64,000 nucleotides of DNA from Cellvibrio sp. OA-2007 (lineage in GTDB: Bacteria > Pseudomonadota > Gammaproteobacteria > Pseudomonadales > Cellvibrionaceae), in NCBI RefSeq assembly GCF_000953825.1, contig NZ_BBUL01000020.1, positions 310,001 through 374,000 on the forward strand, given 5' to 3'. The position numbers and the translations under genes were made by a program. The notes under the pieces were generated by a model. It searched no databases and was not told where the DNA came from. It saw only the letters and a program-made list of their open reading frames with translations. This document shows positions 11,417 through 29,786 of the stretch, piece after piece; the stretch's first letter is position 1, and each line of letters begins with the position of its first letter.

Positions 11417-11836
11417 TTATTCCGGTTGGCTCAGAATCAGGCGCCCGCGCAACAGCGTATTGCCGGCTTGCTGCGCCACCAGTTCATAAATGGCGCCCTG
11501 GCTGCTGCTGAGCAAACATTGCGCATACAAATCCAGCGCGCAGGAATTGTCGGCGATGGCGGTCAAGAACTCAACATCCTTAACTGCACCTATGTAGGCG
11601 GGGCGGGCTTCACCCAGCCGCGATTGCAATAGTCCGGCGTGTACGGCGGCGGCTTGGGCGCCATATTCCAGCAATAACACTGAGTCTAATTGCTCATTTT
11701 CAAAGAGGGGATTGGCGGCGCTGGCAAACTGACTACTGCGGCAGTGGATCTGGCTTTCATCCCAAGCGACAACTTCATCGAGCAGACACATGGAATCGCC
11801 GTGGGGAATCAGCGCGGCAATTTGCGCGCGATCCAT
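11417..11836 (-). CDS. Hotdog-fold 3-hydroxyacyl-ACP dehydratase, aryl-polyene type
   Basis: A 139-residue hotdog protein resembling the ApeP-like dehydratases of aryl-polyene clusters. It has LIPHGDSMCLLDEVV near residues 9-23, with the His expected in the active site, and the central helix segment LLEYGAQAAAVHAG. The ATG overlaps the stop of the upstream chain-length-factor gene by one base (TGATG), which favours 11836 over a GTG at 11842. It is the last gene of the leftward pigment operon. It probably removes water from the beta-hydroxyacyl-ACP polyene intermediate. Which of the four dehydratase-like genes acts at which step cannot be told. Confidence 0.85.
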   Translation of the reverse strand: MDRAQIAALIPHGDSMCLLDEVVAWDESQIHCRSSQFASAANPLFENEQLDSVLLLEYGAQAAAVHAGLLQSRLGEARPAYIGAVKDVEFLTAIADNSCALDLYAQCLLSSSQGAIYELVAQQAGNTLLRGRLILSQPE

Positions 11837-12630
11837 CAACACGGCTGCACCTCTAATTGCAGCGATTGTTGATTGGTACAGGCAAATACCAGCGAGCCGG
11901 ATTTAGCTTGGGCAATAAGTTCCAGTAACGGCAAGCTGCGCGCCGCAGGGTTGGCGCAGCGCAAGGCTTCCAGTGCCGGTTGTGCCGCAGTGCTGGGCGC
12001 GGTTGTGTCAGTTGATTGGAGCTGCAATCGGGAGAGACTGTGTTCACTGGCAGTGGGGCTGAGCAGCAGCGCCACGCCAAACTCCACCGGTATCAGTCGT
12101 TTGCCGCCGAGTGGGTAAGGCGGTTGGATATCGTACACCGCCAGCAGGGTCGGCAATTGCTCCTGCTGGCACAGGCACATGGCTTCCAGCAGACCCACTG
12201 CAAAGCTGTCGTCATAGGCGGAAAGGCTGGTCGATGGCTGGCGGCTGCCAGTAGCGATGCTCCAGTAACCGGCGGCGGAATTGTGCACCGAGTTGTGGAA
12301 TTGGGTGGGTGATACTAATCGTTCACTTTCGCACAGGGAGCGGCAGATCTGGTCGATGATCGGGTAGTCGCCGCCAGATGAGGCAAACACACTGGCGCAG
12401 TCCGCCATGGGTATTGCACTTGCCGCCATCAATTCTTCACATACGCGAAACGCCATGCGCACCAGTTCGGTGGCGCGGCGGCGCTCATTGGCGGGCAGCA
12501 GTTCGGGTTTGTATTTTTCCAGTGGGCTGGGTTCATAGGCCGCTTGCCCTTGCAAAACGGCGGTGCTGGCCTGCCAGCTTGGCAAGCCCGGAGCGGCGAG
12601 GCCGATAGCATTGAGATAGCATTCCAGCAT
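11836..12630 (-). CDS. Ketosynthase-like chain length factor (N-terminal KS domain only)
   Basis: A 264-residue protein of the beta-ketoacyl synthase-like group (Ketoacyl-synt_2 type) found in aryl-polyene and xanthomonadin clusters. It is about half the length of a full ketosynthase, which is normal for this family. It has VFASSGGDYPIIDQIC, then PTQFHNSVHNSAAGYWSIA, where a full ketosynthase would place its active-site Cys region; I see no nucleophilic Cys there. It then has SLSAYDDSFAVGLLEA. It likely pairs with the adjacent complete ketosynthase (12630-13799) as a heterodimer, like ApeC with ApeO. Its start codon overlaps that gene's stop by one base (TAATG). Confidence 0.87.
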   Translation of the reverse strand: MLECYLNAIGLAAPGLPSWQASTAVLQGQAAYEPSPLEKYKPELLPANERRRATELVRMAFRVCEELMAASAIPMADCASVFASSGGDYPIIDQICRSLCESERLVSPTQFHNSVHNSAAGYWSIATGSRQPSTSLSAYDDSFAVGLLEAMCLCQQEQLPTLLAVYDIQPPYPLGGKRLIPVEFGVALLLSPTASEHSLSRLQLQSTDTTAPSTAAQPALEALRCANPAARSLPLLELIAQAKSGSLVFACTNQQSLQLEVQPC

Positions 12631-13799
12631 TACAAACTCCCCAAAATCAGGCTGCAGTTGCTGCCGCCAAAACCAAAAGAATTGCTCAGTACACGCGTCA
12701 CCGGCTGGATCGCCGCTTCTTTCAATAGCGCGATATTCATGCCTTCGTCGGCTTCCTGTAGATGCAGGTTTTGCGGCAGATGCCCGTGGACTATGGCGTC
12801 CAGCCCGATACAAGCCTCCACTATTCCCGCCGCACCCAGGGTGTGGCCAGTCCAGCCTTTGGTGGAGCTGGCAGGGGTAGCATTGCCAAATAACTGCTCT
12901 ACTGCTTTGGCTTCGGCGCTGTCGTTGGCTTGGGTGCCGGTGCCGTGTAGGTTGATGTAATCGATCTGGTTAGGGGCTAAACCTGCTTTGCGCAGCGCCG
13001 CACTCATCGCCAATTGGGCACCGGCGCCATCGGGATGAGGTGATGACATATGGTAGGCATCGCCGCTCTCGCCGTAGCCGAGCAGATACAAACCGCTTTC
13101 ATCGCCTTTTTCAAGCAGCGCAAAACCACCGGCTTCCCCGATAGAAATGCCGCTACGCTGGCGATCAAAGGGTTGGCATTTTTGCGGCGAAACCAGTTGC
13201 AGGGCGTGAAAACCGTAGAGAGTGGTCAAGCACAGGCTATCGACTCCGCCGACAATTGCCGCATCACACAAGCCGGCGGTGATAGCACGCTGCGCCGAGG
13301 CGAATACTTTGGCGCTGGAGGAGCAGGCGGTAGAGATTGCCATCACCGGCCCTTGGGTGCCCAGCGCTTGCTGGATAAAGGTAGCGACCGAGGACACATT
13401 GTGGGTAGTGCCGTACTTATACCAGTCGGGCAGCGGGTCTTGATTCTCGAAGTAGGCCAATTCGGTCTGGTGAATGCCGGAGGTGCTGGTGCCCATAAAT
13501 ACCCCGACCCGCGCCGCGCCGTAGCGGGCGATAGCGGCTTCAGCCGCGCTGAAAAACCCATCTTGCTGCAAGGCTAGCCAGGCGAGGCGATTGTTGCGGC
13601 AGTCAAAGTCGAGCAGCCGCGCGGGCAGCGCATCGCCCAGATCGGCCACTTCGCCAATCCAGGTATCGAGATCACTGATCTGGAAAAAGTCGCAGGGTTT
13701 CAGCCCGGAGCGACCCGCTTGCAGAGCCTCCCAATTAGCGCTAAGGCCTGCACCCAAACAGCTGGTGTAGGTGTAATTAGTGATGCGCAGAGGTTTCAT
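12630..13799 (-). CDS. Beta-ketoacyl-ACP synthase (FabF-like), pigment chain elongation
   Basis: A 389-residue type II ketosynthase. The catalytic Cys is in STACSSSAK (about 159), and the two His are in INLHGTGTQ (about 285) and WTGHTLGAAG (about 319), so the triad is complete. The ATG at 13799 (MKPLRITNY) is preferred to the upstream in-frame Met because it matches the usual ketosynthase N-terminus. The gene overlaps the acyltransferase upstream by 23 bases and the chain-length-factor gene downstream by one base, which implies translational coupling. It should catalyse decarboxylative condensation of malonyl-ACP units onto the aryl polyene chain. Confidence 0.93.
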   Translation of the reverse strand: MKPLRITNYTYTSCLGAGLSANWEALQAGRSGLKPCDFFQISDLDTWIGEVADLGDALPARLLDFDCRNNRLAWLALQQDGFFSAAEAAIARYGAARVGVFMGTSTSGIHQTELAYFENQDPLPDWYKYGTTHNVSSVATFIQQALGTQGPVMAISTACSSSAKVFASAQRAITAGLCDAAIVGGVDSLCLTTLYGFHALQLVSPQKCQPFDRQRSGISIGEAGGFALLEKGDESGLYLLGYGESGDAYHMSSPHPDGAGAQLAMSAALRKAGLAPNQIDYINLHGTGTQANDSAEAKAVEQLFGNATPASSTKGWTGHTLGAAGIVEACIGLDAIVHGHLPQNLHLQEADEGMNIALLKEAAIQPVTRVLSNSFGFGGSNCSLILGSL

Positions 13800-14724
13800 C
13801 TTGCCAAAAGTCATAAAAATTAAACCAATTGTAGGGGTGCTTATGCACCAGATCCTGTAGCTGCGCGACGTAGCGCGCCATACCTACTTCGATGGCCGCC
13901 GTGCGATCCTGACGGCTAGTGCCTAGCTGTTCGCTGATCAATTCAAAGTGCAGATCGTAGCGATTGGCGCCGGAGTAAACGCCAAAACAGCTGATCACCG
14001 GTGCTTTGAGCAGCGCGGCTAATTGCCAGACGCCGGCGGGAAATTCGGCCGGTGCGCCGAAAAAGTCGACAGTGCTACTGCGCTCCCCCTGCGCGCAGCG
14101 GTCGGCCATGATACCGACCAAGTGCCCCTGCTCAATCGCTTCACTCAAAATCAGCGCCAGCGCGGGTGCGGGGGTACGCGCGTCAATCACGCCAGCGGCG
14201 AGTTGCGGGTCGAGCTTCTCTAGCAGGCGCATCACATTGGCGTTGTGTTGGATATCCAACAAGATGCGAATGGGCAGAGCATCGCTGCGGCGACCCATGC
14301 CCATCACGCGCAGCGCATCGAAGCTGCCGATATGGGCGGTGAGCAAAAAGCAGCCGCGATTTTTGTAGTCGTCGAACAATTGATTGCCGTGGATGTGGAC
14401 ATCAAATTCGGCTTCGCGCCCGGCGAGAAAATAGATGCGATCCATCGCGACCTGCGCAAAGGTTAGCAGATGACGGTATATCTCCCACCACTTGGGTGTT
14501 CGCTGGCGCGCGCGCCGTAAAAAATGGCGCGATGCAGTGCGGGCGCTGCGGGCAAACAGAAAGTAATAAAACACAATCACACACAGCCACACAAAAATCA
14601 TTCGCCGCCCCAAATTCAACGCCACCCAAGTGAGCAGGTTGAGCAAAAACGGGGTGCCGCGCTCCTGCTGGGTTTGCCAGCCTTTTGCGGTTGATGGTTT
14701 GGCGCTGGTGGATGATTCAGTCAT
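13777..14724 (-). CDS. LpxL/HtrB-like acyltransferase
   Basis: A 315-residue lysophospholipid/lipid A type acyltransferase. It has a basic N-terminal region with a hydrophobic helix (MIFVWLCVIVFYYFLFA), then the HX4D motif in TAHIGSFDAL. MADRCAQGERSSTVDFFGAPAEFP gives further family blocks (shown only in part: MADRCAQGE). The start at 14724 overlaps the stop of the upstream dehydratase by eight bases. In aryl-polyene clusters such enzymes are thought to attach the polyene carboxyl group or other acyl groups to a lipid. The acceptor here is unknown. Confidence 0.87.
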   Translation of the reverse strand: MTESSTSAKPSTAKGWQTQQERGTPFLLNLLTWVALNLGRRMIFVWLCVIVFYYFLFARSARTASRHFLRRARQRTPKWWEIYRHLLTFAQVAMDRIYFLAGREAEFDVHIHGNQLFDDYKNRGCFLLTAHIGSFDALRVMGMGRRSDALPIRILLDIQHNANVMRLLEKLDPQLAAGVIDARTPAPALALILSEAIEQGHLVGIMADRCAQGERSSTVDFFGAPAEFPAGVWQLAALLKAPVISCFGVYSGANRYDLHFELISEQLGTSRQDRTAAIEVGMARYVAQLQDLVHKHPYNWFNFYDFWQDETSAHH

Positions 14725-15025
14725 GCACACACTCGAATTGGCCTTTGAGCACCGGTGTTTCACCCTTATAGGCGGCAAGGGTGAAGGTCTTTGTACCGGG
14801 GGTGATGCAAATGCGCAATTCATCCCCCGGCAGTACCGGCGCGAGAAATTTTACCTGTTTCAGGTAATTGACTTGCCCGAAGTTGGCATTGGCCAGCAGC
14901 GCGATAATCCACTTGAGTAGCAGCGCACCGGGCACCAGTGGTGCGCCGGGAAAATGGTCGGCATAACAGGCGTGCGCGCCGGGGATCGGCAAGCGCAATT
15001 CCTGTGTGGTCTTAGCGTTGCTCAT
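14717..15025 (-). CDS. FabZ-like hotdog dehydratase (ApeI-type)
   Basis: A short 102-residue hotdog protein whose core motif is ADHFPGAPLVPGALLLKW, with the catalytic His at about 24. This is the FabA/FabZ H-FPG-x-x-x-PG pattern. The ATG at 15025 (MSNAKTTQEL) lies inside the end of the upstream ligase gene (overlap of 14 bases). It is shorter than FabZ but typical of ApeI-like proteins in aryl-polyene clusters. It is expected to act on polyene intermediates. A second protein of the same kind is encoded at 22033-22449. Confidence 0.85.
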   Translation of the reverse strand: MSNAKTTQELRLPIPGAHACYADHFPGAPLVPGALLLKWIIALLANANFGQVNYLKQVKFLAPVLPGDELRICITPGTKTFTLAAYKGETPVLKGQFECVHD

Positions 15026-16430
15026 GTAGCTGGTTCCACAATTGATGCAGTGCGGCGGCGGTGAGTTTGCCGGTCTCATTGCGCGGCAAGGCGGTGACTT
15101 TGCGCAGTGGGCGCGGCAAAAAGGGAGCATCTACCCGCTGCGCCAGCGCCGTTAGAATCGTCTTTTCCGGCAATTCACTGACAACTAACGCGACCGGGCG
15201 CGCTTCCTGTTGGCTATTGGACGCTTGGGATGACGGCGGCGGTAGAAAAATCACCCCGTCTTGCACCCCATCAATACGCAATAGCTGCAGGGTTAGATTA
15301 GCCAGTGAGGCGCGTTTGCCCGCTACATTGATCATATCGGCGTTGCGCCCGCAGAGCAGGAAGCGGCCATCATCCTGCAGCTCCAGCTGATCTTGAATCG
15401 GTGCATCCACTTGCAAATGCGGTGCACTGGCGCAGGCGCCAGTATCGGTCAGCGTTAATTGAAAGCCATCCAATAATTGCCATGCGGCAGTTTGGGTTGA
15501 GCGGCGGGTGGCCATGCTGCCCGCTTCAGTACAACCGTAAATTTCCCACAGCGGCGCTTGGAAACACTGTTCGGCGGCTTGGGCGAGGCTTGGGTCGAGG
15601 GGCGCTGTCGCCGAGATAATGCCCGCCAGTGGCGGCATAGGTAAGTCGGCGTTAATCAGCGCGCGCAAATGAATCGGGGTGGTGACCAGTATTGCCTTGC
15701 TGGATAGCTGCTGTAACAGCTGTTGTACATCGGCCGGGAAAAACGGTTTGTCGCTGTGCATCACCATGCCTGCTTGCAGCACCATAAACAGGGTAGTTTC
15801 AAGGCCATACATATGTTGCGGTGGCACTGTGCCCACAATCGTTGGCGCAATTAAATCAGCGCCCAGCCGCTGGCCAAGTAAACGCGCGGTGGCCGCGAGT
15901 GTGCCCCAGCATTTGGCATTGGCCTGGGGTTTACCGGTGCTGCCGGAAGTAAAGGCGATAGCGGCAATTTGCTGGGCGGGAATCAGCGGCAGTGCGGGTG
16001 TGTCGGTCGTCTCCGGTGCAGTGTTGGATAGCAGTTCGGCGAGATTGATGCTGGGCAAATCGCAAGGCTGATCTTTGTCGAACAGGCAGTAGCAGCCGGG
16101 ATAATCCTGCGCCAGCTCGGTGAGGGTGAGCGGTTGGCGATTGGGCGGCAGCAAATTAATCGCCCCTTTTACCAGCAGCGCACAAAAGCCCAGTAGAAAG
16201 TAGTAGCGGTCTTCGCAGAGGTTGAGCGCAAAATTGGCGTCGGGCAAACCGGCGGATACTATCTGTAAATCGCGCAGAAACTCGGCTTGGCAAATCTGCC
16301 GCTCTTTATGGATAACCAGAGTTTGTTGCGGCACATAGGGTGCAATCAAGGCAACCGGCGCATTGAGCGCCAGCGCGGGAAGCGCAGACAGGTCAGAAGA
16401 GTCGGGGCAGGCGGAGCCGGAAGCTAACAT
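15012..16430 (-). CDS. AMP-dependent acyl/aryl-ACP ligase
   Basis: A 472-residue member of the adenylate-forming ligases. The ATP loop is TSGSTGKPQ (about 161-169), followed by the aromatic acceptor region PPQHMYGLE, the motif EIYGCTEAGS, and a C-terminal catalytic Lys in RNETGKLT (about 455). In aryl-polyene and xanthomonadin clusters the homologue activates the aromatic starter and loads it on an ACP. With the chorismatase at 18343, the likely substrate here is a hydroxybenzoate. The gene starts 11 bases after the membrane-protein gene and overlaps the downstream dehydratase. Confidence 0.9.
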   Translation of the reverse strand: MLASGSACPDSSDLSALPALALNAPVALIAPYVPQQTLVIHKERQICQAEFLRDLQIVSAGLPDANFALNLCEDRYYFLLGFCALLVKGAINLLPPNRQPLTLTELAQDYPGCYCLFDKDQPCDLPSINLAELLSNTAPETTDTPALPLIPAQQIAAIAFTSGSTGKPQANAKCWGTLAATARLLGQRLGADLIAPTIVGTVPPQHMYGLETTLFMVLQAGMVMHSDKPFFPADVQQLLQQLSSKAILVTTPIHLRALINADLPMPPLAGIISATAPLDPSLAQAAEQCFQAPLWEIYGCTEAGSMATRRSTQTAAWQLLDGFQLTLTDTGACASAPHLQVDAPIQDQLELQDDGRFLLCGRNADMINVAGKRASLANLTLQLLRIDGVQDGVIFLPPPSSQASNSQQEARPVALVVSELPEKTILTALAQRVDAPFLPRPLRKVTALPRNETGKLTAAALHQLWNQLHEQR

Positions 16431-16441: not shown

Positions 16442-17050
16442 TTAAGAGCGGATATTGGCACGGGCGATAATGCGCAGGTATTCAAAAAATCCCGGGTGAT
16501 TATGGGTAGGGAAGAGTTTTTTGCGCAGCATAAACTCGCCTACAAACAACACCCCGACCACACCATAGTTAATGATATTGGTAAACCAGGACCACAATTC
16601 CGGTTGCTCCAGCCAGGGCAAAATCGCCGACCAGAGAATCATCACTGCAAAGACAATACACCAGAGCTGTGTGAGTCTGTGGGTGTAGTTGCGCATCGCC
16701 TGCGACAGAGGGCCGCGCGCAGCTTCGCCAATTGCGGTGATCAAGGGTTCGCGCCCGTTAAGCAGTGTGCGGCCAAAAATAAACAGCAGCAGCAGTGGGA
16801 TAATTATTGGTGGCAGAAACAGCAGATACAGGGTTAAACCCAGATATTCGAGCAGCACAACCGCAGTGCACAGCAAGCCAAACACCAGCCAGACAGTTTT
16901 GTTGCGGTTGCCCAAACCCTGCCAGCAGACACCGGCTAAAAACAGCATAGGGGCAATAAACAGTAATTGCGGCACTGCAAACACCAGTGCGATATGCACC
17001 AGCAGTGGGTAGGCCGCAATCAGGGCAATTGCGATAACACGGTTAAGCAC
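16442..17050 (-). CDS. Polytopic membrane protein of aryl-polyene clusters (COG4648 type)
   Basis: A 202-residue hydrophobic protein with about five to six membrane helices, including IAIALIAAYPLLVHIALVF at the N-terminus, LFIAPMLFLAGVCW, and LYLLFLPPIIIPLLLLFIFG. A polar loop with EAARGPLSQAMRNYTHRLTQ links the halves. It resembles the predicted membrane protein that regularly lies between ACP and ligase genes in aryl-polyene clusters. No activity is known. It overlaps the ACP gene by eight bases, so the two are probably coupled. Confidence 0.8.
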   Translation of the reverse strand: MLNRVIAIALIAAYPLLVHIALVFAVPQLLFIAPMLFLAGVCWQGLGNRNKTVWLVFGLLCTAVVLLEYLGLTLYLLFLPPIIIPLLLLFIFGRTLLNGREPLITAIGEAARGPLSQAMRNYTHRLTQLWCIVFAVMILWSAILPWLEQPELWSWFTNIINYGVVGVLFVGEFMLRKKLFPTHNHPGFFEYLRIIARANIRS

Positions 17051-17321
17051 GTTGCACGTTTATATAGCTGCTCAGTGAACGCAGGCTGTGGAAAATTGCC
17101 TTGTTGTTCTCATCGTCAGCTTTGAGCTGCACTTTGTAGTGCTTGGCAATGGCCAGTGAAATTTCCAGCGCGTCGATGGAATCCAGCCCCAGACTTTCGC
17201 TGTGGCTGGCATCAAACAAGGGGGCTTCCGGGTTGATATCGGCTGGCTCCAGGTCTTCCAGATCCAACGCCTCGATTAACAGCGCCGCCAATTCCAATTC
17301 TTCTTGTGTGTGTGAACTCAT
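17043..17321 (-). CDS. Acyl carrier protein (pigment ACP 1)
   Basis: A 92-residue acidic ACP with the phosphopantetheine attachment Ser in GLDSIDALE (about residue 48). The N-terminal half is very acidic (EALDLEDLEPADINPE). The insertion before the Ser loop (APLFDASHSESLGLDS) is typical of aryl-polyene ACPs rather than fatty-acid AcpP. It is one of two ACPs in the cluster; the other is at 21743. It may carry the aromatic starter or the growing chain. It follows the methyltransferase gene by 43 bases. Confidence 0.92.
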   Translation of the reverse strand: MSSHTQEELELAALLIEALDLEDLEPADINPEAPLFDASHSESLGLDSIDALEISLAIAKHYKVQLKADDENNKAIFHSLRSLSSYINVQRA

Positions 17322-17364: not shown

Positions 17365-18126
17365 TTACGCGCGAGCGGGTTTGATGCCGGTATATTCGCT
17401 GAAAATGCTCAGCACTACGGCGCGTTTGCTCTGCTCCAAACCCGTCGATTTTAGGGCTTCGACGATTGTCGCGGGCGGCACACATTGTTCGATGGTATCC
17501 CAGTAGTAGCGCATCAACACTTTGCTGTCGGCGCTGCGGCGGAAAATCTTGGCCAAATTGGGGATCACAATTTTGAGGTAGAACTTTAAAAATGCGGTGG
17601 CAATTTTGCCTTCGGGGCGAGTAATTTCCAGCAGCAGGATTTTGCCGCCCGGCTTAAGTACACGCTGGTATTCGGCAAACGCGGCGCCCAAGTCGGCAAC
17701 ATGGCGCAGGGCGAAACCCATGGTGAGGTAGTCGAAGGTGTCATCGGGGAAGGGCAATGCTTCGCCCAGACCCATAGAGGTGTGCTCAACGCCCAGTTTA
17801 ACGGCTTGGGTCAACATGCCCTTGCTTGGGTCAAGCGCGACCACCAAGCCCTCTTCGCCGACGATTTGCTGCGCCAGCCAGGAGACCACGCCGGTGCCGG
17901 CGCCTACATCCAATACTTTGTCGCCCGCTTTAATGCCAGCGCGCAACAATGCTTGGCGGCGATACATGCGGCCTGAGCCAAAACTCATGACATCAGTGAT
18001 CCAGTCGTAGTGCTCCGCTGATGAGTCAAACATCTCATCAACACGGGTGCGCCGGTCTTCGGCTTTGCCGTAATAGTCCGGCAGTACCGGGTGTGGAGCT
18101 AAACGATTCTGTTCATTGTTGGTCAT
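17365..18126 (-). CDS. UbiE/COQ5-like SAM-dependent methyltransferase
   Basis: A 253-residue class I methyltransferase. Motif I is VLDVGAGTGVVSWLA (about residue 70), an acidic residue ends the second strand in VVALDPSKGM, and the UbiE-like block reads FDYLTMGFALRHVADL. It is not the housekeeping ubiquinone gene by context, since it heads the leftward pigment operon. It may methylate the aryl head group or a polyene carbon. The start ATG at 18126 has a weak ribosome site (GGGA). The intergenic region to 18342 carries promoters for both directions. Confidence 0.85.
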   Translation of the reverse strand: MTNNEQNRLAPHPVLPDYYGKAEDRRTRVDEMFDSSAEHYDWITDVMSFGSGRMYRRQALLRAGIKAGDKVLDVGAGTGVVSWLAQQIVGEEGLVVALDPSKGMLTQAVKLGVEHTSMGLGEALPFPDDTFDYLTMGFALRHVADLGAAFAEYQRVLKPGGKILLLEITRPEGKIATAFLKFYLKIVIPNLAKIFRRSADSKVLMRYYWDTIEQCVPPATIVEALKSTGLEQSKRAVVLSIFSEYTGIKPARA

Positions 18127-18156
18127 GATTTTGGAGTCCCTAAAAAATAAGCGCGT

Positions 18157-22449: not shown

Positions 22450-23213
22450 ACCCATCCCCCGGCGAACTGGATTTCAAACCCTGCGTGGTAATCCCGGTCT
22501 TTAATCATCCGCATAAAATTGCCGCCGTGGTCGCCCGTTTGCGCGACTATCATTTGCCCGTGCTGCTGGTGGATGATGGCAGTGAAGCAGGTTGTGCGCA
22601 GTTGTTGGATCAGCTTGCCGCGCACAATACCGATGTGCACTTGTTGCGCCTGCCGCACAATGCAGGCAAAGGCGCGGCGGTGTGCAAGGGCTTTGCACTG
22701 GCGCAGCGTCAGGGTTTTACCCATGCATTGCAAGTCGATGCCGATGGCCAGCACGATTTGGATGATGTGCCAAAATTTCTCGCCTGCGCCCAACAACACC
22801 CCCTCGCAGTTATTAGTGGCTGGCGCAGTTACGAGGCCATGCCGCGCTCGCGTCGTAGTGGGCGCAAACTGACTGACTTTTGGGTGTGTGTGAATACCTT
22901 GTCGCGCAGCATTAAAGATTCCATGTGCGGCTATCGCCTCTATCCGCTGGTGCCCACCATGGAATTACTGGCGCGCAAAAAAATCGGCGCGCGCATGGAT
23001 TTTGATACCGATATTCTGGTGCGTTTGTATTGGCAGGGGTTAGCAGTGGAAAATATCCCCACGGATATTTTGTATCAGGATGATATGCCCTCGCACTTCG
23101 ATGTCATCAAAGACAATGTGCGCATCAGCTGGATGCACACCCGTTTATTTTTCGGCATGTTGCCGCGCATCCCCGTATTATTGCACCGTCATTTTTCTAC
23201 GCATCAGCGTTAA
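22446..23213 (+). CDS. Family 2 glycosyltransferase
   Basis: A 255-residue GT-A fold glycosyltransferase without a membrane anchor. The N-terminal block is CVVIPVFNHPHKIAAVV, followed by VLLVDDGSEAG and the metal-binding segment VDADGQHDLDD. The C-terminal part has MDFDTDILVRLYWQGL. It is similar to polyprenol-phosphate or aryl-polyene cluster glycosyltransferases (ApeJ-like as I recall). It may add sugar to the pigment or its lipid anchor. It overlaps the dehydratase upstream by four bases and the thioesterase follows after 19 bases. Confidence 0.88.
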   Translation: MNPSPGELDFKPCVVIPVFNHPHKIAAVVARLRDYHLPVLLVDDGSEAGCAQLLDQLAAHNTDVHLLRLPHNAGKGAAVCKGFALAQRQGFTHALQVDADGQHDLDDVPKFLACAQQHPLAVISGWRSYEAMPRSRRSGRKLTDFWVCVNTLSRSIKDSMCGYRLYPLVPTMELLARKKIGARMDFDTDILVRLYWQGLAVENIPTDILYQDDMPSHFDVIKDNVRISWMHTRLFFGMLPRIPVLLHRHFSTHQR

Positions 23214-23658: not shown

Positions 23659-24327
23659 ATGAATAAATTGATTGTTTTTATTCGGTCACTGCTGTTGGGT
23701 GTTGGTCTGTTATTGGCTTGCACCGCACAGGCAAATACCCAGGCGCAAATTGATCAGGTGGTAAAACGCCTCAGCGACATTGCGGTGGTGCAGGGTGGTT
23801 TTAATCAGCAAAAAAAATTGCAGGGGTTAGCTTACCCACTGAATGCGCAGGGGCAGTTTATTTTCTGGCGCGGGCAGGGTTTGTATATCGCCAATGAAAA
23901 ACCATTTTTTAGTGCGATGACCATTACTGGCGGCGATATTATTAACTGGCAAAAAAATGGCACAGGCAGCATTGCCAGCGAACAATCTGGCTTGATCCAG
24001 CGCGAAATTAATAAAACCTTGCTCGCTTTTTTGAGTGCCGACATAGCGCTGATTCAACAGCGTTTTATTGCCGATTGGATTTTTGAGCAGGAGCAGTGGC
24101 AATTAACCCTAACGCCGCGACTCGATCTGATTAAAAAAAATATGCGCAACGCGGTGATGAATGGCGATCAATTTTTGCAGAAATTGGTAGTGACTGCGGC
24201 CAATGGCGATGAGACAACTATTGAATTTCATTCACAAATTGAAAGCGCCGCTCCCAGCGCAGCGCAGTGCCAATGGTTTTATCTGCAACCACAACAACCC
24301 TGTGCCAGTTTTGCATCGGCGCCGTAA
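23659..24327 (+). CDS. LolA-like periplasmic carrier of the pigment export set
   Basis: A 222-residue protein with a signal peptide (about 1-25, cut after AQA) and a mature part resembling the outer-membrane lipoprotein carrier LolA, with the strand GQFIFWRGQGLYIANEKPF. Aryl-polyene clusters regularly encode such a protein (ApeL-like as I recall) next to an MMPL exporter and a lipoprotein. It is therefore expected to shuttle the hydrophobic pigment or its lipid conjugate across the periplasm. It is diverged from the housekeeping LolA and is unlikely to replace it. Confidence 0.8.
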   Translation: MNKLIVFIRSLLLGVGLLLACTAQANTQAQIDQVVKRLSDIAVVQGGFNQQKKLQGLAYPLNAQGQFIFWRGQGLYIANEKPFFSAMTITGGDIINWQKNGTGSIASEQSGLIQREINKTLLAFLSADIALIQQRFIADWIFEQEQWQLTLTPRLDLIKKNMRNAVMNGDQFLQKLVVTAANGDETTIEFHSQIESAAPSAAQCQWFYLQPQQPCASFASAP

Positions 24328-24367: not shown

Positions 24368-26779
24368 ATGATAAAAACAATAAACATTTCGCTGGCGCGC
24401 TGGCAGCAGTTATTTAGCTGGGCATTGTTGTTGCTGTCCGTTGTTGTACTGCTCTTGGCTTATCCCCTGCTGCAAAAAGGTTTTGTGCTGGAGACAGATC
24501 TGCAAAGCCTGTTTCCGCAAGATCGCCACAACCCACTGGTCAATAAAATCAATGAGCGTTTGTATCGCGAATTTGGCAATAAGCTTTTGGTCGCCGTGCA
24601 GGCAGCAGACATGGAACAGGCTAGTGCCGCGGCGGAGCTGGTAGACGTTGCGATAAACACAAACCCACAGCTGCAGATAAGTGCACCTAATGCACAGATG
24701 GAGTTAGCCGCACATCAGCGTGAATTATTGCAGCGCTATCGCTACCAATTATTAACCCCCGCACAACAGCAATTAATAAACACTCAAACACAGGATCTGT
24801 TAGAGCAGGCGCAGGCTGCATTGTTCGGTTTTAGTTTGGGCGGCAGTGGTTTGTCGCCGCTGCAAGACCCACTCAATCTCTCCCCCGCGTACCTGCAACA
24901 ATTACAACCGGCGGTTAAAGGTGAATTCATTAATGATCGCTTGGTGATATCCAACAGCGATGGTCATTTAATTTTATTTGTGCTCAATTTGCACGGCGAA
25001 GCGTTTAATTTACAGCTGCAGGCGCAGATGAGTTCATGGTTGCTAAATCTGCGCAACCAGTTGGCTAGCAACCCCCAAACGTCGGCGACGCAAGTGTTGG
25101 TTTCCGGTGCCGTGTTCCATGCCGCCGAAGCCTCAGCCAATGCGCAGCGCGAAATGAGCATTATCGGCGGCGGCTCAAGTTTGGGGGTGTTGCTGTTATT
25201 TTTGCTTGCCTTTCGCCGCATTAAACCGCTGCTGGTGAGTGTGTTATCAATTGCTTATGGCTGTTTGGTGGCGCTGGTTATCAATCATTTTTTGTTTGGC
25301 AAAATTCATTTAATGACGCTGGTATTTGGCGCGAGTTTGATTGGTGTGGCGGTTGATTATTCGCTGCACTATTTATGTAAACATCAGGATCTGTCGCGCG
25401 CAGTTCCCGATGCGCATCTGCGCGGCAAACGTGTGTTGGAAAAATTATTGCCCGCGTTGAGTTTGAGTTTAATTACCTCGGTTTTGGGTTACAGCAGTTT
25501 GTTGTCTACGCCTTTGCCCGGTCTGCAACAAATTGCCTTGTTTTCGATGATGGGGTTGGCAGGTTCCTGGTTATTTTTAGTCGTGACTTATCCATTGCTG
25601 ATACGTCAGCCGCTGCCGCAACCGGTCGCGATTATTGATCGCTGCGCCGCAGCGGTGTGGTTATTTTGGGCGCGTATGCGCGGTGTACCAGCGCGGCTTA
25701 TTGCTGTCGGCTTAGCGACGTTAATAGTAGTGGGTATTGTGAGTGTGCAGCTGAGCAGCGATGTGCGCACACTTTATAAACCTTCAGCGCAATTGCTGGC
25801 CTCTGAGCAGCGTTTGCAGCGTGCATTACAGGGTGTTGCACCGAATCAATATTTTTTGCTGCGCGCTAAAACGGCAGAAGAATTGTTGCAAAGCGAAGAG
25901 CGTTTCCGCCGCGAGCATTTGGATGGGCTAGTCGCTGCGGGCGCATTAACTGGCTACATTGCTACCAGCAGCATAGTGCCTTCGCTACAGCAGCAAGCGG
26001 TTAACTATGCATTGCTGCAGCCGCTGTATCGCGCGGAAGGTTTGGTTGGCCAATTTATGCAGTCGGCTGGTTTTGATGCGCAGGCGATTGTGCAGGCAGA
26101 GCAGGATTTTTCTGCGGCGGCACCGCAGCATTTGTTGGTAGATGATTGGCTTAAAGTGGCGCGCCCGGATCAAGGTTTGTTGTGGATGGGGCAATTGGAA
26201 GGTGACTACGTGAGTATTGTCGGCTTACGTGGTGTAGCCGATGTGCAGGCATTGTCGGCGGCGGCGAATAATCACTCAGTGGTTTGGGTTGATCGTGTCG
26301 CCGGTATGTCGCAATTGTTGCAGTCACTGATGAATTCCGCCGCGCTGTTATTGCTGCTCGCCTACCTTGTGCTCTTGCTACTGCTGTGGATTTATTATCG
26401 CCGTGCACACGCATTGCTGTTAATTTTTGTGCCGCTGTTAGCAACGCTGACCACGTTGAGTTTGTTGTCGATCAGCGGTGTCGCGATTAATGTTTTTCAT
26501 GTGTTTGGCTGCTATTTAATTCTTGGTCTGGGCATGGATTACGCCATCTTTTCCTTTGCTGAAGGCACGCAAGATCAGGTCACCCGGCGCGCGATTTGGC
26601 TGTCGGCACTGACCAGCAGTTTATCGTTCGGTTTGCTTGCGCTCAGCTCTACGCCCATGGTTAGCGCGTTTGGCATCACCCTGTTATTGGGCTGCTGTTT
26701 CAACTTGTTTTATGCGCCTCTAATCGGACGGCTACATAAGATCAGCGTGTCAGGAGGGAAGCCTAATGAACGGCAATAG
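24368..26779 (+). CDS. MMPL/RND-family exporter
   Basis: An 803-residue inner-membrane transporter. One helix near the N-terminus is followed by a large periplasmic region, a block of helices at about residues 265-425 (SIIGGGSSLGVLLLFLLAFR and AVDYSLHYLCK), a second periplasmic loop and a second block at about 650-795 (NSAALLLLLAYLVLLLLLWI and GLGMDYAIFSF). The two-fold repeat with Asp in GVAVDYS and GLGMDYA is typical of the MMPL family. In aryl-polyene clusters this is the candidate for moving the pigment lipid out of the inner membrane. It overlaps the lipoprotein gene by 14 bases. Confidence 0.92.
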   Translation: MIKTINISLARWQQLFSWALLLLSVVVLLLAYPLLQKGFVLETDLQSLFPQDRHNPLVNKINERLYREFGNKLLVAVQAADMEQASAAAELVDVAINTNPQLQISAPNAQMELAAHQRELLQRYRYQLLTPAQQQLINTQTQDLLEQAQAALFGFSLGGSGLSPLQDPLNLSPAYLQQLQPAVKGEFINDRLVISNSDGHLILFVLNLHGEAFNLQLQAQMSSWLLNLRNQLASNPQTSATQVLVSGAVFHAAEASANAQREMSIIGGGSSLGVLLLFLLAFRRIKPLLVSVLSIAYGCLVALVINHFLFGKIHLMTLVFGASLIGVAVDYSLHYLCKHQDLSRAVPDAHLRGKRVLEKLLPALSLSLITSVLGYSSLLSTPLPGLQQIALFSMMGLAGSWLFLVVTYPLLIRQPLPQPVAIIDRCAAAVWLFWARMRGVPARLIAVGLATLIVVGIVSVQLSSDVRTLYKPSAQLLASEQRLQRALQGVAPNQYFLLRAKTAEELLQSEERFRREHLDGLVAAGALTGYIATSSIVPSLQQQAVNYALLQPLYRAEGLVGQFMQSAGFDAQAIVQAEQDFSAAAPQHLLVDDWLKVARPDQGLLWMGQLEGDYVSIVGLRGVADVQALSAAANNHSVVWVDRVAGMSQLLQSLMNSAALLLLLAYLVLLLLLWIYYRRAHALLLIFVPLLATLTTLSLLSISGVAINVFHVFGCYLILGLGMDYAIFSFAEGTQDQVTRRAIWLSALTSSLSFGLLALSSTPMVSAFGITLLLGCCFNLFYAPLIGRLHKISVSGGKPNERQ

Positions 26780-27326
26780 AAAATCGAGTCTGGGTCTCGG
26801 CCTGTTACTGATCGCACTGGTAGCGCTGGGTGGTTGCAGTGGTTTAAAGCGCAGCGATTTCACTTTATTAACGCGCAGCAGCGATCAGCAAATCCATGTC
26901 GCGCAGCAGCAATGGCTGGTGCAACAGGGGCAACAGGAATACACACTGGAAGTAATTGTCGAGCGCAGCGCTGACCACTGGCGTTGGATTATGCTGAGCC
27001 AATTGGGCCAGCGTGTGGCGACGGTAGAATCCTTAAATGGACAGGTGCAAATCGAGCGCCATCAATCCCACGCAGCCATGCAATGGTTACCGGAATTGCT
27101 GCAGGCCTGGCAATTCAGCTATTGGCCGCTGGCGGATTTGCAAACGGCTGATCCGCGCTGGCAGTTCGTCGAGCGCGACGGGCGCCGTGAAGCGAGCTTT
27201 TCTGGTATATTGCGCGCCTCCATTGAGTACCAACAGATAACTGATCGGGCTAATCCCTGGCAGGGTAGCCTGGGCTATGTCACACGCGAGTTTAGCTTGC
27301 GCATTCATAGCCAGCCGCTGAATTGA
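26766..27326 (+). CDS. Lipoprotein of aryl-polyene clusters (DUF3261-like)
   Basis: A 186-residue protein with a lipobox ending LALGGC? style: the hydrophobic stretch GLLLIALVALGGC puts the lipidated Cys at residue 24. The mature part is Gln/Trp-rich (HVAQQQWLVQQGQQEY) and resembles the small outer-membrane lipoproteins that accompany LolA-like and MMPL genes in such clusters. It is likely a receptor for the carried pigment, by analogy with LolB. The start lies inside the end of the exporter gene. Confidence 0.8.
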   Translation: MNGNRKSSLGLGLLLIALVALGGCSGLKRSDFTLLTRSSDQQIHVAQQQWLVQQGQQEYTLEVIVERSADHWRWIMLSQLGQRVATVESLNGQVQIERHQSHAAMQWLPELLQAWQFSYWPLADLQTADPRWQFVERDGRREASFSGILRASIEYQQITDRANPWQGSLGYVTREFSLRIHSQPLN

Positions 27327-27327
27327 T

Positions 27328-27813
27328 ATGCCTATGACGCACGCACCGCTATTTGAATCGGTAGAGGATTTACTGCTCCACCGCCCGCCCATGCTGCTGC
27401 TGAAATCGGTATTGCGCTGGAGTGAGAGTCAGCTGGAAGCACTGGTCGATCCACGCGATTCCCATTTATTTATGGACGCCGATGGCCGCATTCCCGCATG
27501 GGTCGGCATCGAATATATGGCGCAAGCCATAGGTGCGCTGGCTGGCATAGAATCGCGCCGCGCCGGTCAACCGGTCTGTTTGGGTTTTTTACTCGGCACT
27601 CGCCGCTATCATGCGGAGCTGAGCCATTTTGATCCGGTACAGGAGCTGCGAGTAAGCGTGCGCGAGTTGCTGCGCGATGAAACCAATCTGGTGTTATTCA
27701 AGTGTGAGATACACAGCGGTGAGCAACTGCTCGCCCACGCAGAAATAAAAGCAATCCAGCCCAAGGATGTCGAGGCGGTTATGGCGCAATTTACGCAAAT
27801 GAATGCGGTTTAG
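27328..27813 (+). CDS. ApeP-like 3-hydroxyacyl-ACP dehydratase
   Basis: A 161-residue hotdog protein of the ApeP type. Its N-terminal helix block is DLLLHRPPMLLL (His at about 18) and the central helix is GIEYMAQAIGALAG. Both blocks recur in the protein encoded at 11417-11836, although that one is shorter. The ATG is one base after the lipoprotein stop. It probably acts with the ketoreductase and ketosynthase encoded next to it in each elongation cycle. Confidence 0.87.
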   Translation: MPMTHAPLFESVEDLLLHRPPMLLLKSVLRWSESQLEALVDPRDSHLFMDADGRIPAWVGIEYMAQAIGALAGIESRRAGQPVCLGFLLGTRRYHAELSHFDPVQELRVSVRELLRDETNLVLFKCEIHSGEQLLAHAEIKAIQPKDVEAVMAQFTQMNAV

Positions 27814-27822
27814 GAGATCAAA

Positions 27823-28554
27823 GTGGATAACAATAAGAGAGTATTAGTGACTGGCTCCAGCCGTGGCATTGGCCGGGCGATTGCCCTGCATTTGGCGCGC
27901 GATGGCTACGAGGTGGTGATTCACTGCCGCAGTCAGCGCAGTCAGGCGGAAGAAGTGCAGCAGCTGATTGAAGCGGCTGGCGGCAAAGCCAGTATTCTGC
28001 AGTTTGATGTAGCCGAGCGCGAGCAGGCCAGACAATTGTTGGAAGCCGATATGGACGCCAATGGCGCCTACTATGGTGTTGTGTGCAACGCCGGTATCGC
28101 GCGCGATAACGCCTTTCCCGCCATGAGTGGCGAGGATTGGGATGCCGTCATCCACACCAATCTCGATGCCTTTTACAACGTGCTTAATCCGGTAATTATG
28201 CCGATGGTGCGCCGTCGCGCGCCCGGTCGTATAGTCACCCTCGCCTCAGTCTCGGGCATTATGGGCAACCGCGGACAAGTCAATTACAGTGCGGCCAAAG
28301 CCGGTATTATCGGCGCCACAAAAGCGCTGGCGATTGAATTGGCCAAACGCGATATCACCGTCAACTGTGTCGCGCCCGGTTTGATCAATACCGAAATGCT
28401 CGCCGATGCGCCGGTTGAAGAGGCGTTAAAACTGATCCCCATGCGCCGCGCCGGTGAACCGGACGAAGTGGCATCCTTGGTCAGTTATCTCTTATCAGCC
28501 CCGGCGGGTTACATTACCCGACAGGTTATTTCAGTGAATGGCGGAATGTTTTGA
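27823..28554 (+). CDS. 3-ketoacyl-ACP reductase (FabG-like)
   Basis: A 243-residue short-chain dehydrogenase with TGSSRGIGRA at residues 10-19, NAG at about 89-91, and the catalytic Ser/Tyr/Lys in ASVSGIMGNRGQVNYSAAK (Tyr about 155, Lys about 159). It starts with GTG after GGAG. It is the only ketoreductase in the cluster and so should serve both the chain-starting and elongation modules, reducing 3-ketoacyl-ACP with NADPH. Its stop overlaps the next start (TGATG). Confidence 0.94.
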   Translation: MDNNKRVLVTGSSRGIGRAIALHLARDGYEVVIHCRSQRSQAEEVQQLIEAAGGKASILQFDVAEREQARQLLEADMDANGAYYGVVCNAGIARDNAFPAMSGEDWDAVIHTNLDAFYNVLNPVIMPMVRRRAPGRIVTLASVSGIMGNRGQVNYSAAKAGIIGATKALAIELAKRDITVNCVAPGLINTEMLADAPVEEALKLIPMRRAGEPDEVASLVSYLLSAPAGYITRQVISVNGGMF

Positions 28555-29786
28555 TGAAGCGCGTAGTGGTGACAGGAATGGGGGTGGTTACCGCCCTGGG
28601 CGATAACTGGCCGGAATTTTCCGCCAAACTAAAATCCGGCACTAGCGCGATTCGCCGCCTGGAAGACTGGGCGACCTATAAGGATTTGAATACTAATCTC
28701 GCTGGCCCGATTGAAGATTTTGTGGTGCCCGCCCATTACCCGCGCAAAAAGATTCGCTCGATGGGGCGTGTTGCTCTCTTATCTACCCGTGCAACTGAGC
28801 TGGCGTTGATCGATGCCGGTCTGCTCGATGACCCTATTTTGCAAAGCGGTGCTATGGGTGTTGCCTATGGTTCATCCACCGGCAGCACCGATGCCACCCG
28901 CGATTTTGCGGTGATGCTGGATAAACGCGATATCGGCGGCGCTACCGCCACCACTTATATCCGCATGATGGGTCATACCGCACCGGTGAATGTGGGTGTG
29001 TTTTTTGGCTTAAAGGGGCGGATCATCACCACTTCGTCTGCCTGTACTTCCGGCAGCCAGGGCATAGGTTATGCCTATGAGGCGATCAAATACGGTAAAC
29101 AGACCCTGATGGTTGCCGGTGGCGCTGAAGAACTGTGCCCCTCCGAAGCCGCCGTGTTCGATACGCTTTATGCCACCAGTACCAAAAATGCTACCCCGAA
29201 CCTGACCCCCAGCCCGTTTGATAGCGGGCGCGATGGCTTGGTTATCGGCGAAGGTGCCGGCACCTTGATCCTCGAAGAGTTGGAACACGCACAGGCGCGC
29301 GGGGCAACTATCTACGCTGAACTGATCGGTTTTGGCACCAACTCCGATGGTGGCCATGTCACCCAGCCAGATCCGGCTACTATGAATATCGCTATGCAAA
29401 TGGCCTTGGATGATGCCGGTTTGCAGCCCGCCGACATCGGCTATATCAACGCCCATGGCACTGCGACTGACCGCGGCGATATCGCAGAGTCCACCGCTAC
29501 CGAAAAATTGTTTGGCAAACAGACAGTGCCGATCAGTACACTCAAGGGCAATATTGGCCACACTCTCGGTGCCTGTGGGGCAATTGAGGCTTGGGCAAGC
29601 ATCCAAATGATGAACGAAGGTTGGTTTGCGCCGACCCTGAACCTGCACACCCCCGATCCACAGTGTGGCGATTTGGACTACATCATGGGTGAAGGCAGGG
29701 AACTGGATTGCCCTTACATCATGAGTAACAATTTTGCTTTTGGCGGGATTAATACCTCGCTGATTTTTAAACGTTGGACTAACTGA
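28554..29786 (+). CDS. Beta-ketoacyl-ACP synthase (FabF-like), second ketosynthase
   Basis: A 410-residue ketosynthase beginning MKRVVVTGMGVVTALG. The catalytic Cys is in SSACTSGSQ (about 164), the His residues in NAHGTATDRGD (about 301) and KGNIGHTLG (about 336). A TTG at 28551 is possible, but the ATG at 28554 overlaps the reductase stop by one base. It is full length and unlike the partial chain-length-factor-like protein. It is the last gene of the rightward run before a secreted protein gene, and may do initiation or late elongation (ApeR-like as I recall). Confidence 0.93.
   Translation: MKRVVVTGMGVVTALGDNWPEFSAKLKSGTSAIRRLEDWATYKDLNTNLAGPIEDFVVPAHYPRKKIRSMGRVALLSTRATELALIDAGLLDDPILQSGAMGVAYGSSTGSTDATRDFAVMLDKRDIGGATATTYIRMMGHTAPVNVGVFFGLKGRIITTSSACTSGSQGIGYAYEAIKYGKQTLMVAGGAEELCPSEAAVFDTLYATSTKNATPNLTPSPFDSGRDGLVIGEGAGTLILEELEHAQARGATIYAELIGFGTNSDGGHVTQPDPATMNIAMQMALDDAGLQPADIGYINAHGTATDRGDIAESTATEKLFGKQTVPISTLKGNIGHTLGACGAIEAWASIQMMNEGWFAPTLNLHTPDPQCGDLDYIMGEGRELDCPYIMSNNFAFGGINTSLIFKRWTN

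What the first reader, a model, noticed from the sequence alone, without database searches (positions are those of the whole stretch)
11417..29786. Complete aryl-polyene pigment cluster fed by a chorismatase, in a Cellvibrio-like chromosome
The genes form a full type II polyketide set for an aryl polyene: two ketosynthases, a chain-length-factor-like protein, a ketoreductase, four dehydratase-like hotdog proteins, two ACPs, an AMP ligase, a thioesterase, two acyltransferases, a glycosyltransferase, a LolA-like carrier, an MMPL exporter and a lipoprotein. Canonical E. coli-type clusters use an ammonia-lyase to make the starter. Here the first rightward gene is a chorismatase of the FkbO/Hyg5/XanB2 family, as in Xanthomonas xanthomonadin. 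That suggests a hydroxybenzoate-capped polyene in a lineage in which I am not aware of a described pigment of this kind.
Basis: partly seen in the sequence, partly recalled or inferred. Interest (0 to 1): 0.75.

Follow-up and report, generated by a model that had tools for sequence, protein, structure and literature searches.

The report
Mosaic pigment cluster at swap site
A Cellvibrio bacterium carries a complete set of genes for a yellow envelope pigment; the kind of cluster is known, but this one mixes parts of two pigment lineages and sits at a chromosomal spot where related species carry a different pigment cluster or none.

Summary
Window 11417-29786 is a complete aryl-polyene (APE) cluster in a Cellvibrio genome: two divergent runs, 22 genes plus one opposed gene, led rightward by a chorismatase with its catalytic Glu. 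Its contrast with E. coli is wrong: that cluster has no ammonia-lyase and is described as using 4-hydroxybenzoate from UbiC. Cellvibrio APE clusters are already in print, including for C. mixtus J3-8, which carries an orthologue of this one.

Two things go further. The cluster is a mosaic: 9 of 9 leftward genes score best against xanthomonadin-like clusters, 10 of 12 rightward genes after the chorismatase against E. coli/ammonia-lyase APE clusters, leaving two ketosynthases, two ACPs and two ApeI/ApeP-like pairs. The ligase tree splits by starter source (23 against 6 rows). And it fills a swap site between a dynamin-like gene and metX, where congeners hold this cluster, an ammonia-lyase APE cluster, other genes or nothing; two close sister genomes differ. 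No congener has both kinds of APE cluster (10 chorismatase, 5 lyase, of 21). Product, head group and function are inferred; nothing was measured.

The parts
8606..10621 (+). dynamin-like GTPase; left border of the swap site (not part of the pigment pathway)
   Evidence: Pfam Dynamin_N 5.9e-17; directly next to metX in 8 of 17 congeneric metX loci
10904..11401 (-). small YbjQ-like protein that seems to travel with the cassette
   Evidence: Pfam YbjQ_1 3.5e-4, below its cut-off; 60-63% relatives beside ammonia-lyase clusters in L069, L073, L083 and 66% beside the off-site cluster of G012
11417..11842 (-). ApeP-like hotdog, xanthomonadin-type copy
   Evidence: no Pfam match; matches in 29 of 36 xanthomonadin-like loci, none at E<=1e-5 in ammonia-lyase loci or E. 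coli
11836..12813 (-). chain-length-factor-like ketosynthase N-domain (ApeC / Lysobacter ORF16 type); an in-frame ATG at 12630 is the likely start
   Evidence: Ketoacyl-synt_2 1.1e-28; tree sets 5 ammonia-lyase copies apart at 100
12630..13814 (-). ketosynthase (ApeO / Lysobacter ORF17 type), CSSS motif present
   Evidence: Pfam; with 12 of 14 xanthomonadin-like KS, SH-aLRT 94, not starred
13777..14823 (-). LpxL-type acyltransferase
   Evidence: Lip_A_acyltrans 6.8e-10; tree 99, apart from E. coli, ammonia-lyase and type B copies
14717..15130 (-). ApeI-like hotdog, xanthomonadin-type copy
   Evidence: ApeI-like E 3.3e-4, below cut-off; 7 of 36 xanthomonadin-like loci, none at E<=1e-5 in ammonia-lyase loci or E. 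coli
15012..16430 (-). AMP ligase, predicted 3-hydroxybenzoate:ACP ligase
   Evidence: AMP-binding 3.7e-18; ligase tree splits 23 chorismatase-linked from 6 ammonia-lyase/E. coli rows, 100*
16442..17050 (-). ApeG-like membrane protein
   Evidence: no Pfam match; 27-30% to E. coli ApeG and ammonia-lyase copies
17043..17321 (-). acyl carrier protein, DSID motif
   Evidence: PP-binding 1.5e-6
17365..18126 (-). UbiE-like methyltransferase, candidate head-group or polyene methylase
   Evidence: Ubie_methyltran 1.1e-35; below the NCBIfam UbiE cut-offs; 13 of 36 xanthomonadin-like loci, none at E<=1e-5 in ammonia-lyase loci or E. coli
18127..18342 (.). divergent promoter region with a conserved element (18149-18169) and TATAAT at 18268-18273
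   Evidence: element once per genome in 5 of 6 type A genomes and in none of the other 15 of 21; TATAAT invariant in 4 aligned regions; the sigma-70 scan found 0 sites
18343..19347 (+). chorismatase, predicted to make 3-hydroxybenzoate (with or without 4-)
   Evidence: PF21168 8.4e-34; Hyg5 5ag3 9.3e-50; E325, G232, C318 present, A169 in place of Gly
19293..20132 (+). PlsC-type acyltransferase (ApeD-like)
   Evidence: Acyltransferase 3.4e-16; on the side of E. coli and ammonia-lyase copies, 100
20159..20806 (-). opposed, predicted helical membrane protein of unknown function
   Evidence: no Pfam or NCBIfam match; 55-78% orthologues in L019-L021 only; low-confidence all-helical model
20832..21587 (+). 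SAM methyltransferase, candidate tailoring enzyme
   Evidence: Methyltransf_11 1.5e-21
21740..22030 (+). acyl carrier protein, DSID motif
   Evidence: PP-binding 3.1e-12; matches in 10 of 10 type B loci, 4 of 8 ammonia-lyase loci and E. coli, none of 36 xanthomonadin-like loci
22033..22449 (+). ApeI-like dehydratase
   Evidence: ApeI-like 1.2e-17
22446..23213 (+). family 2 glycosyltransferase (part of ApeJ)
   Evidence: Glycos_transf_2 6.9e-20; 56% to E. coli
23230..23655 (+). 4HBT thioesterase (ApeK)
   Evidence: 4HBT_2 7.8e-12
23659..24327 (+). LolA-like carrier (ApeL)
   Evidence: LolA 1e-8
24368..26779 (+). MMPL/RND exporter (ApeM)
   Evidence: MMPL 1.1e-9; tree 100, on the side of E. coli and ammonia-lyase copies
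26766..27326 (+). DUF3261 lipoprotein (ApeN, LolB-like)
   Evidence: DUF3261 8.3e-23
27328..27813 (+). ApeP-like dehydratase
   Evidence: ApeP-like 7e-14
27823..28554 (+). ketoreductase (ApeQ)
   Evidence: adh_short_C2 3.9e-54; tree 100* apart from 13 xanthomonadin-like KRs
28551..29786 (+). second ketosynthase (ApeR type)
   Evidence: NCBIfam NF006587 730 bits, cut-off 470; in a 20-row set with E. coli ApeR, 99*
29818..30561 (+). unknown protein at the right edge that seems to travel with the cassette
   Evidence: no Pfam or NCBIfam match; 71% in L077, 62% in L073, 59% in L082; 33% in L023
30734..31876 (+). metX; right border of the swap site
   Evidence: found in 17 of 18 genus genomes of that search

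Best explanation
A complete chorismatase-fed aryl-polyene pathway, held as an exchangeable cassette between a dynamin-like gene and metX. Proposed working: the chorismatase (18343) turns chorismate into 3-hydroxybenzoate; the ligase (15015) loads it on an ACP; KS 12633 with CLF 11839 extends it with malonyl units while KR 27823 and two ApeI/ApeP-like pairs make the double bonds; ApeR-type KS 28551 assists initiation; thioesterase 23230 releases the acid; methyltransferases tailor it; the acyltransferases and glycosyltransferase join it to a lipid; LolA/MMPL/DUF3261 carry it to the outer membrane, where it would quench reactive oxygen and light damage. Shown here: gene content, key motifs, mosaic ancestry, different occupants of one site. 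Inferred: all chemistry, the head group, localisation and function.
For: Gene content. Orthologous clusters in 5 further congeners; like layout in Marinibactrum halimedae and MAG L093, and in L092, L094-L096 as far as the contigs reach. Catalytic Glu in 99 of 99 aligned rows; Gly232/Cys318 as in benzoate-forming Hyg5, not Ala/Ala as in FkbO. Ligase tree: 23 chorismatase-linked against 6 lyase/E. coli rows, 100*. UbiC is present in the same genome. Mosaic: 9 of 9 leftward genes score best against xanthomonadin-like loci; 10 of 12 rightward genes after the chorismatase against E. coli/lyase loci; quick trees agree: KR 100*, MMPL and AT 19293 100, AT 13777 99, KS 28551 99*, GT 95, KS 12633 94. 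Swap site. Conserved divergent-promoter element.
Against: No product, expression or phenotype data. No Xanthomonas or Azoarcus sequence was in the trees; 'xanthomonadin-like' means 36 loci chosen by me for their chorismatase-linked layout (Dechloromonas, Methylotenera and others; one of them, L107, shows no APE gene). PMC3949708 warns that alignment alone does not predict the chorismatase product. Of three residues called characteristic of Hyg5-type enzymes the window has two, Ala169 standing for the third. 18 of 80 named chorismatase loci show no APE gene, so this enzyme family is not pigment-bound everywhere. Two rightward genes do not fit the mosaic: methyltransferase 20832 (52 bits, xanthomonadin-like loci only of the three sets) and DUF3261 (no match in the three sets). 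ACP 17043 is unresolved; the KS and ligase trees carry long-branch warnings, with the E. coli rows among the long ones.
Confidence: 0.85

Rival explanations
1. The chorismatase is XanB2-like in being bifunctional and the starter is 4-hydroxybenzoate, as in E. coli APE; 3-hydroxybenzoate is minor.
For: XanB2-type enzymes make both acids (PMC3949708). In 4 of 17 chorismatase-bearing genomes (G025, G031, G034, G037, the last 75% complete) no UbiC match was found, which would fit a 4-hydroxybenzoate role there.
Against: UbiC is present in the window genome, so 4-hydroxybenzoate is already available; the ligase groups with chorismatase-linked ligases and not with E. coli ApeH.
Confidence: 0.25
2. 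The cluster makes a polyene-dialkylresorcinol ester of the arcuflavin kind rather than a lipid-linked polyene.
For: Chorismatase-type polyene clusters occur together with dialkylresorcinol genes in Azoarcus, Dechloromonas, Variovorax and Sideroxydans (PMC3949708).
Against: No dialkylresorcinol gene was recognised in the cluster; acyltransferases, GT, LolA and DUF3261 fit lipid attachment and outer-membrane transport as proposed for E. coli (PMC8253772). The rest of the genome was not searched for dar genes.
Confidence: 0.1
3. The two sets of ketosynthase, ACP and dehydratase pairs are evolutionary leftovers; only one set works.
For: Each parental kind works with one set: Lysobacter has one KS with a CLF-like protein and two DH (PMC3691225 passages); deletion of apeR left E. 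coli pigmented (PMC8253772).
Against: Both sets are open with motifs in place in the window, and both are kept in four further Cellvibrio loci (L019, L020 with L077, L021, L023 with L088) at 43-97% identity.
Confidence: 0.3
4. Silent or decayed cluster.
For: No expression or pigment data.
Against: All genes are open, many overlap, the order is kept in congeners and the promoter element is conserved.
Confidence: 0.07

Closest known systems
Xanthomonadin cluster of Xanthomonas / Lysobacter enzymogenes OH11
   Same: Chorismatase-supplied hydroxybenzoate, KS next to a CLF-like half protein, LolA and exporter genes
   Different: Lysobacter has one KS and two DH (PMC3691225 passages); here a second, ApeR-type KS, a second ApeI/ApeP-like pair, a second ACP, a thioesterase and an APE-type KR/export half. 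No halogenase in the window (25 Trp_halogenase matches in the genome, none in the window)
Arcuflavin clusters of Azoarcus sp. BH72
   Same: XanB2-type chorismatase (ArcB), AMP ligase (ArcT), LolA, acyltransferases (PMC3949708)
   Different: Azoarcus splits the polyene genes over two loci, with a halogenase, and has separate dialkylresorcinol genes; here one locus
E. coli CFT073 APE cluster (apeA-R)
   Same: tblastn matches for ApeC-M and O-R; DUF3261 (ApeN) by annotation and Pfam
   Different: E. coli has no chorismatase in the cluster (UbiC supplies 4-hydroxybenzoate, PMC8253772), one run of genes, three KS-type proteins, one ApeI and one ApeP
Ammonia-lyase APE clusters of other Cellvibrio (G003, G005, G013, G014, G016)
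   Same: Aryl-polyene core; three of the five (G003, G013, G014) at the same dynamin-metX site
   Different: Aromatic ammonia-lyase (PF00221), no chorismatase in the cluster; E. coli-like gene order; different ligase lineage

Membership tests
Aryl-polyene (APE) biosynthetic cluster | KS plus CLF-like protein, KR, ApeI/ApeP dehydratases, ACPs, acyl-ACP ligase | tested here: met
Aryl-polyene (APE) biosynthetic cluster | Lipid attachment and transport genes (ApeD, ApeJ, ApeK-N) | tested here: met
Aryl-polyene (APE) biosynthetic cluster | Produces a cell-bound aryl polyene (absorption near 441 nm in E. coli) | not testable with these tools
   needs the strain
Chorismatase superfamily | FkbO_Hyg5-like N-terminal domain and catalytic Glu | tested here: met
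   PF21168 8.4e-34; Glu325
NCBIfam FkbO/Hyg5 subfamily TIGR04444 | Score above the curated cut-off of 325 bits | tested here: not met
   215.1 bits; outside the reference set in the tree
XanB2-type (CH-III) chorismatase | Groups with XanB2, apart from FkbO and Hyg5 | tested here: inconclusive
   apart from FkbO/Hyg5 is met (9-row set, 99*, without the window; Ala169 in 89 of the other 90 rows); XanB2 itself was not in the tree, and 17 rows from loci without APE genes also lie outside that set
XanB2-type (CH-III) chorismatase | Makes both 3- and 4-hydroxybenzoate | not testable with these tools
   needs an enzyme assay
Xanthomonadin cluster | Halogenase beside the cluster (Xanthomonas; absent in L. 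enzymogenes) | tested here: not met
   no halogenase match in the window
Xanthomonadin cluster | One KS/CLF and a KR of the xanthomonadin lineage | tested here: not met
   two KS; KR on the APE side at 100*

The most novel reading that the evidence does not exclude
Cellvibrio species naturally exchange the starter chemistry of their envelope pigment by swapping whole cassettes at one chromosomal site: chorismatase-fed cassette, ammonia-lyase-fed cassette, or none. The chorismatase cassette is itself a fusion of two aryl-polyene lineages at a divergent promoter, whose two KS/ACP/dehydratase sets may both act on one polyene and give a head group or chain length unlike either parent.
Probability: 0.4. 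Interest if true: 0.62.

Novelty: new variant of a known kind. Interest (0 to 1): 0.42.

Why it matters
[quoted passage not shown] Sister Cellvibrio (G013 and C. mixtus J3-8) holding ammonia-lyase and chorismatase cassettes at the same site give a natural matched pair to test what the head group does. A cluster with two dehydratase pairs and two KS of different ancestry allows a direct test of the division of labour between them.

Tried and rejected
Ordinary FkbO/Hyg5 chorismatase: set aside by tree and NCBIfam cut-off. Chorismatase needed for ubiquinone in this genome: weakened by UbiC. A clean rule 'chorismatase replaces UbiC' across 57 genomes: not seen; 13 of 17 chorismatase genomes also have UbiC, and 11 genomes without chorismatase lack it too. 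Plasmid carriage: 11 plasmid records with relatives, all below 60% identity; four were viewed, only H8 with wide flanks, and it shows no annotated APE genes. tRNA or RNA-family anchor: none in the window. Consensus promoters in the divergent region: 0 found, though a TATAAT lies in a conserved block. Structure of the opposed gene 20159: single-sequence model of pLDDT 58, not used further. Pseudoalteromonas distincta hybrid cluster (PMC9966250 passages): a resorcinol hybrid, not this mosaic. Flavoaffinin (PMC11839114 passages): a type I PKS candidate in a clostridium, not related. Xanthomonadales genomes as a source of XanB2: one search failed and was not pursued.

G006 is split over contigs (dynamin gene beside the cluster on one, KS and KR on another). 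No metX-site view for G010 (no match), G018 and G020. The 80 named loci are the best 80 of 416. All trees are 'quick' ones (SH-aLRT only), those of 67 and 77 with 14 of 36 xanthomonadin-like loci and with L019, L021, L025, L028, L138 left out; the E. coli CLF fell out by a coverage filter. The CLF query began at 12570, 20 residues inside the likely start. The Hyg5 and FkbO rows are the aligned stretches, not whole chains. 5 duplicate loci were dropped before the chorismatase tree. The stop flagged inside the lyase matches of G013 and G016 lies at their C-terminal end (residues 515 and 517), so it reads as the normal end of the gene.


Full report
What is there. Pfam scans and translations give two divergent runs. 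Leftward from 18126: UbiE-like methyltransferase, ACP, ApeG-like membrane protein, AMP ligase, ApeI-like hotdog, LpxL-type acyltransferase, ketosynthase, CLF-like half ketosynthase, ApeP-like hotdog (9 genes). Rightward from 18343: chorismatase, PlsC-type acyltransferase, methyltransferase, ACP, ApeI, GT2, thioesterase, LolA, MMPL, DUF3261, ApeP, ketoreductase, ApeR-type ketosynthase (13 genes). One 215-residue helical membrane protein (20159) is opposed to the right run. ACP serines (DSID), ketosynthase Cys and ketoreductase Ser-Tyr-Lys are visible in the translations (motif knowledge recalled).

Organism. The window lies in a 4.6 Mb, 97-contig genome. Genomes that the tool calls same genus include contigs equal in length to named records: Cellvibrio sp. 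UBA8526, C. mixtus J3-8 and Cellvibrio sp. UBA7671. The genus is therefore Cellvibrio; the species is not known.

The chorismatase. It has PF21168 at 8.4e-34 and matches Hyg5 (5ag3) at 9.3e-50 and FkbO (4bps) at 2.8e-40. NCBIfam TIGR04444 gives 215 bits against a cut-off of 325. In a quick tree of 99 rows, FkbO, Hyg5, four plasmid-borne 'FkbO/Hyg5 family' proteins and three lone Cellvibrio chorismatases form one set (99*) that excludes the window gene. The catalytic Glu is present in 99 of 99 rows. At the position of Nat-Hyg5 Gly-164 (PMC7170507 passages; register worked out) all 9 of that set have Gly, FkbO included; of the other 90 rows 89 have Ala and one Thr. Gly232 and Cys318 follow Hyg5, not FkbO. 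This supports a benzoate-forming enzyme outside the FkbO/Hyg5 set, XanB2-like by context, with the warning in PMC3949708 that alignment alone does not settle the product. No XanB2 sequence was in the tree. Against a strict tie to pigments: of 80 named loci, 51 carry at least 5 APE-type genes and 18 carry none, some of them short contigs.

Starter logic. PMC8253772 (parts 1-2 of 7 read) states that the E. coli pathway is predicted to start from 4-hydroxybenzoate, which UbiC makes, and the CFT073 annotation shows neither lyase nor chorismatase in the cluster. The window genome has UbiC. The ligase tree separates 23 chorismatase-linked ligases from 6 of ammonia-lyase or E. coli clusters at 100* (the E. 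coli row is long, and the tool warns about such joins); the window ligase is on the chorismatase side.

Mosaic. Best tblastn scores per group (36 xanthomonadin-like loci, 8 loci of ammonia-lyase type from 6 genomes, E. coli): all 9 leftward genes score higher against xanthomonadin-like loci. Of the 12 rightward genes after the chorismatase, 10 score higher against ammonia-lyase loci or E. coli (LolA only narrowly: 72 against 52 bits). Methyltransferase 20832 matched only chorismatase-type loci, weakly outside Cellvibrio (52 bits in xanthomonadin-like), and DUF3261 matched none of the three sets. Quick trees agree: KR 100*, AT 19293 100, MMPL 100, KS 28551 99* and GT 95 on the APE side; AT 13777 99, ligase 100* and KS 12633 94 (with 12 of 14 xanthomonadin-like rows) on the xanthomonadin-like side; 5 ammonia-lyase CLFs are apart at 100. 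ACP 17043 is unresolved. The same combination is seen in Marinibactrum halimedae (L102) and MAG L093, and in L092, L094-L096 as far as their contigs reach, so it is older than Cellvibrio. Consequence: two ketosynthases, two ACPs and two ApeI/ApeP-like pairs, one from each side. Lysobacter's xanthomonadin set has one KS and two DH (PMC3691225 passages).

Swap site. metX was found in 17 of 18 genus genomes searched. In the 17 loci (fetched flanks): 8 have the dynamin-like gene next to metX (G001, G004, G005, G007, G011, G012, G016, G017; in G001 the genes are 142 bases apart); 3 hold the chorismatase cassette (G000, G002, G015); 3 hold an ammonia-lyase cassette (G003, G013, G014); G008 holds an APE cluster cut before any starter gene; G009 holds other genes; G006 ends at a contig edge. 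G019, fetched apart, also holds the chorismatase cassette. The lyase is PF00221 at 8.4e-163 and is found in five clusters, three at the site, two elsewhere (G005, G016). The YbjQ-like gene and the 29818 gene are missing from the empty sites but accompany off-site clusters of both kinds (G005, G012), so they seem to travel with the cassette. In G013 against G015 the flanks align at 83-89% DNA identity, but inside only 559 bases of the KR do (71%). A metX-metW tree makes G013 and G015 sisters (100/100); a gyrB tree, with gyrB about 130 kb away in the window genome, groups G013, G015 and G010 (97/94). Site state needs at least 6 and 7 changes on these trees; labels are no more clustered than shuffles, as expected for frequent turnover or loss; direction cannot be told.

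Genus tally (21 genomes). Chorismatase-APE in 10: type A (window-like) G000, G002, G006, G012, G015, G019; type B (36-40% chorismatase, other gene order, other place) G001, G004, G007, G017. Ammonia-lyase in 5. No genome has both kinds of APE cluster; G013, a lyase genome, does carry a lone chorismatase of the FkbO/Hyg5 set with no APE gene near it, as do G010 and G015; in G013 it lies beside an AMP-binding/PP-binding gene. KR at 1e-80 in 16: these 15 and G008. The chance of no overlap is 0.023 if genomes were independent, which they are not.

Regulation. A 21-base element in the divergent promoter is found once per genome in 5 of 6 type A genomes (with 2 mismatches in G012, whose cluster lies elsewhere; absent in G006), beside the chorismatase each time, and in none of the other 15. 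It is a candidate operator.

Literature. PMC9203511 passages report an APE cluster in a Cellvibrio contig of the tomato rhizosphere; PMC12281832 passages report arylpolyene clusters in four Cellvibrio including C. mixtus J3-8, and light yellow colonies for C. chitinivorans. PMC5536142 (one passage) lists yellow pigment on TSA as positive in 3 of 6 columns, whose names I did not see. My searches (open-licence PMC only, listings capped) listed no paper whose title or shown abstract start describes a starter swap at one site or this mosaic; I did not read all listed papers.

Verdict. Real and complete; the kind is known; the chorismatase feed is known from xanthomonadin and arcuflavin; the mosaic and the swap site make it a new variant with a testable natural experiment.

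Noticed in passing
G000 whole genome, e.g. C78:399589-404899, outside the window: 25 matches to the Trp_halogenase family in one 4.6 Mb genome, several in tandem, the best above 600 bits; none in the window. The family's cut-off is lax (5 of 14 control genomes pass it). Their role is not known to me here.
   Followed up: no
L031 9105-12207 (G013); relatives in L032 (G015) and L033 (G010): A lone chorismatase of the FkbO/Hyg5 set directly followed in L031 by an AMP-binding plus PP-binding protein, with carbamoyltransferase and MFS genes nearby: a possible separate small natural-product locus.
   Followed up: partly
L071 (G013:C9), right edge: The ammonia-lyase cassette of G013 lacks the ApeR-type ketosynthase next to metX that the lyase cassettes of G003 and G014 keep; G013 was also negative in the genus search for that KS.
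   Followed up: partly
window 18127-18342: Strongly conserved block of the divergent promoter with two short inverted motifs (CGTA-TACG, TTAC-GTAA, by eye), a candidate cluster-specific operator.
   Followed up: partly
window 20159-20806: Helical membrane protein gene opposed to the right run, conserved at 55-78% in three congeners at the same place and without a match in the other compared clusters.
   Followed up: partly
L076 (G009) 17733-19166: In G009 the dynamin-metX gap holds an ammonium-transporter-like gene (by eye from its translation) and no pigment cluster.
   Followed up: no
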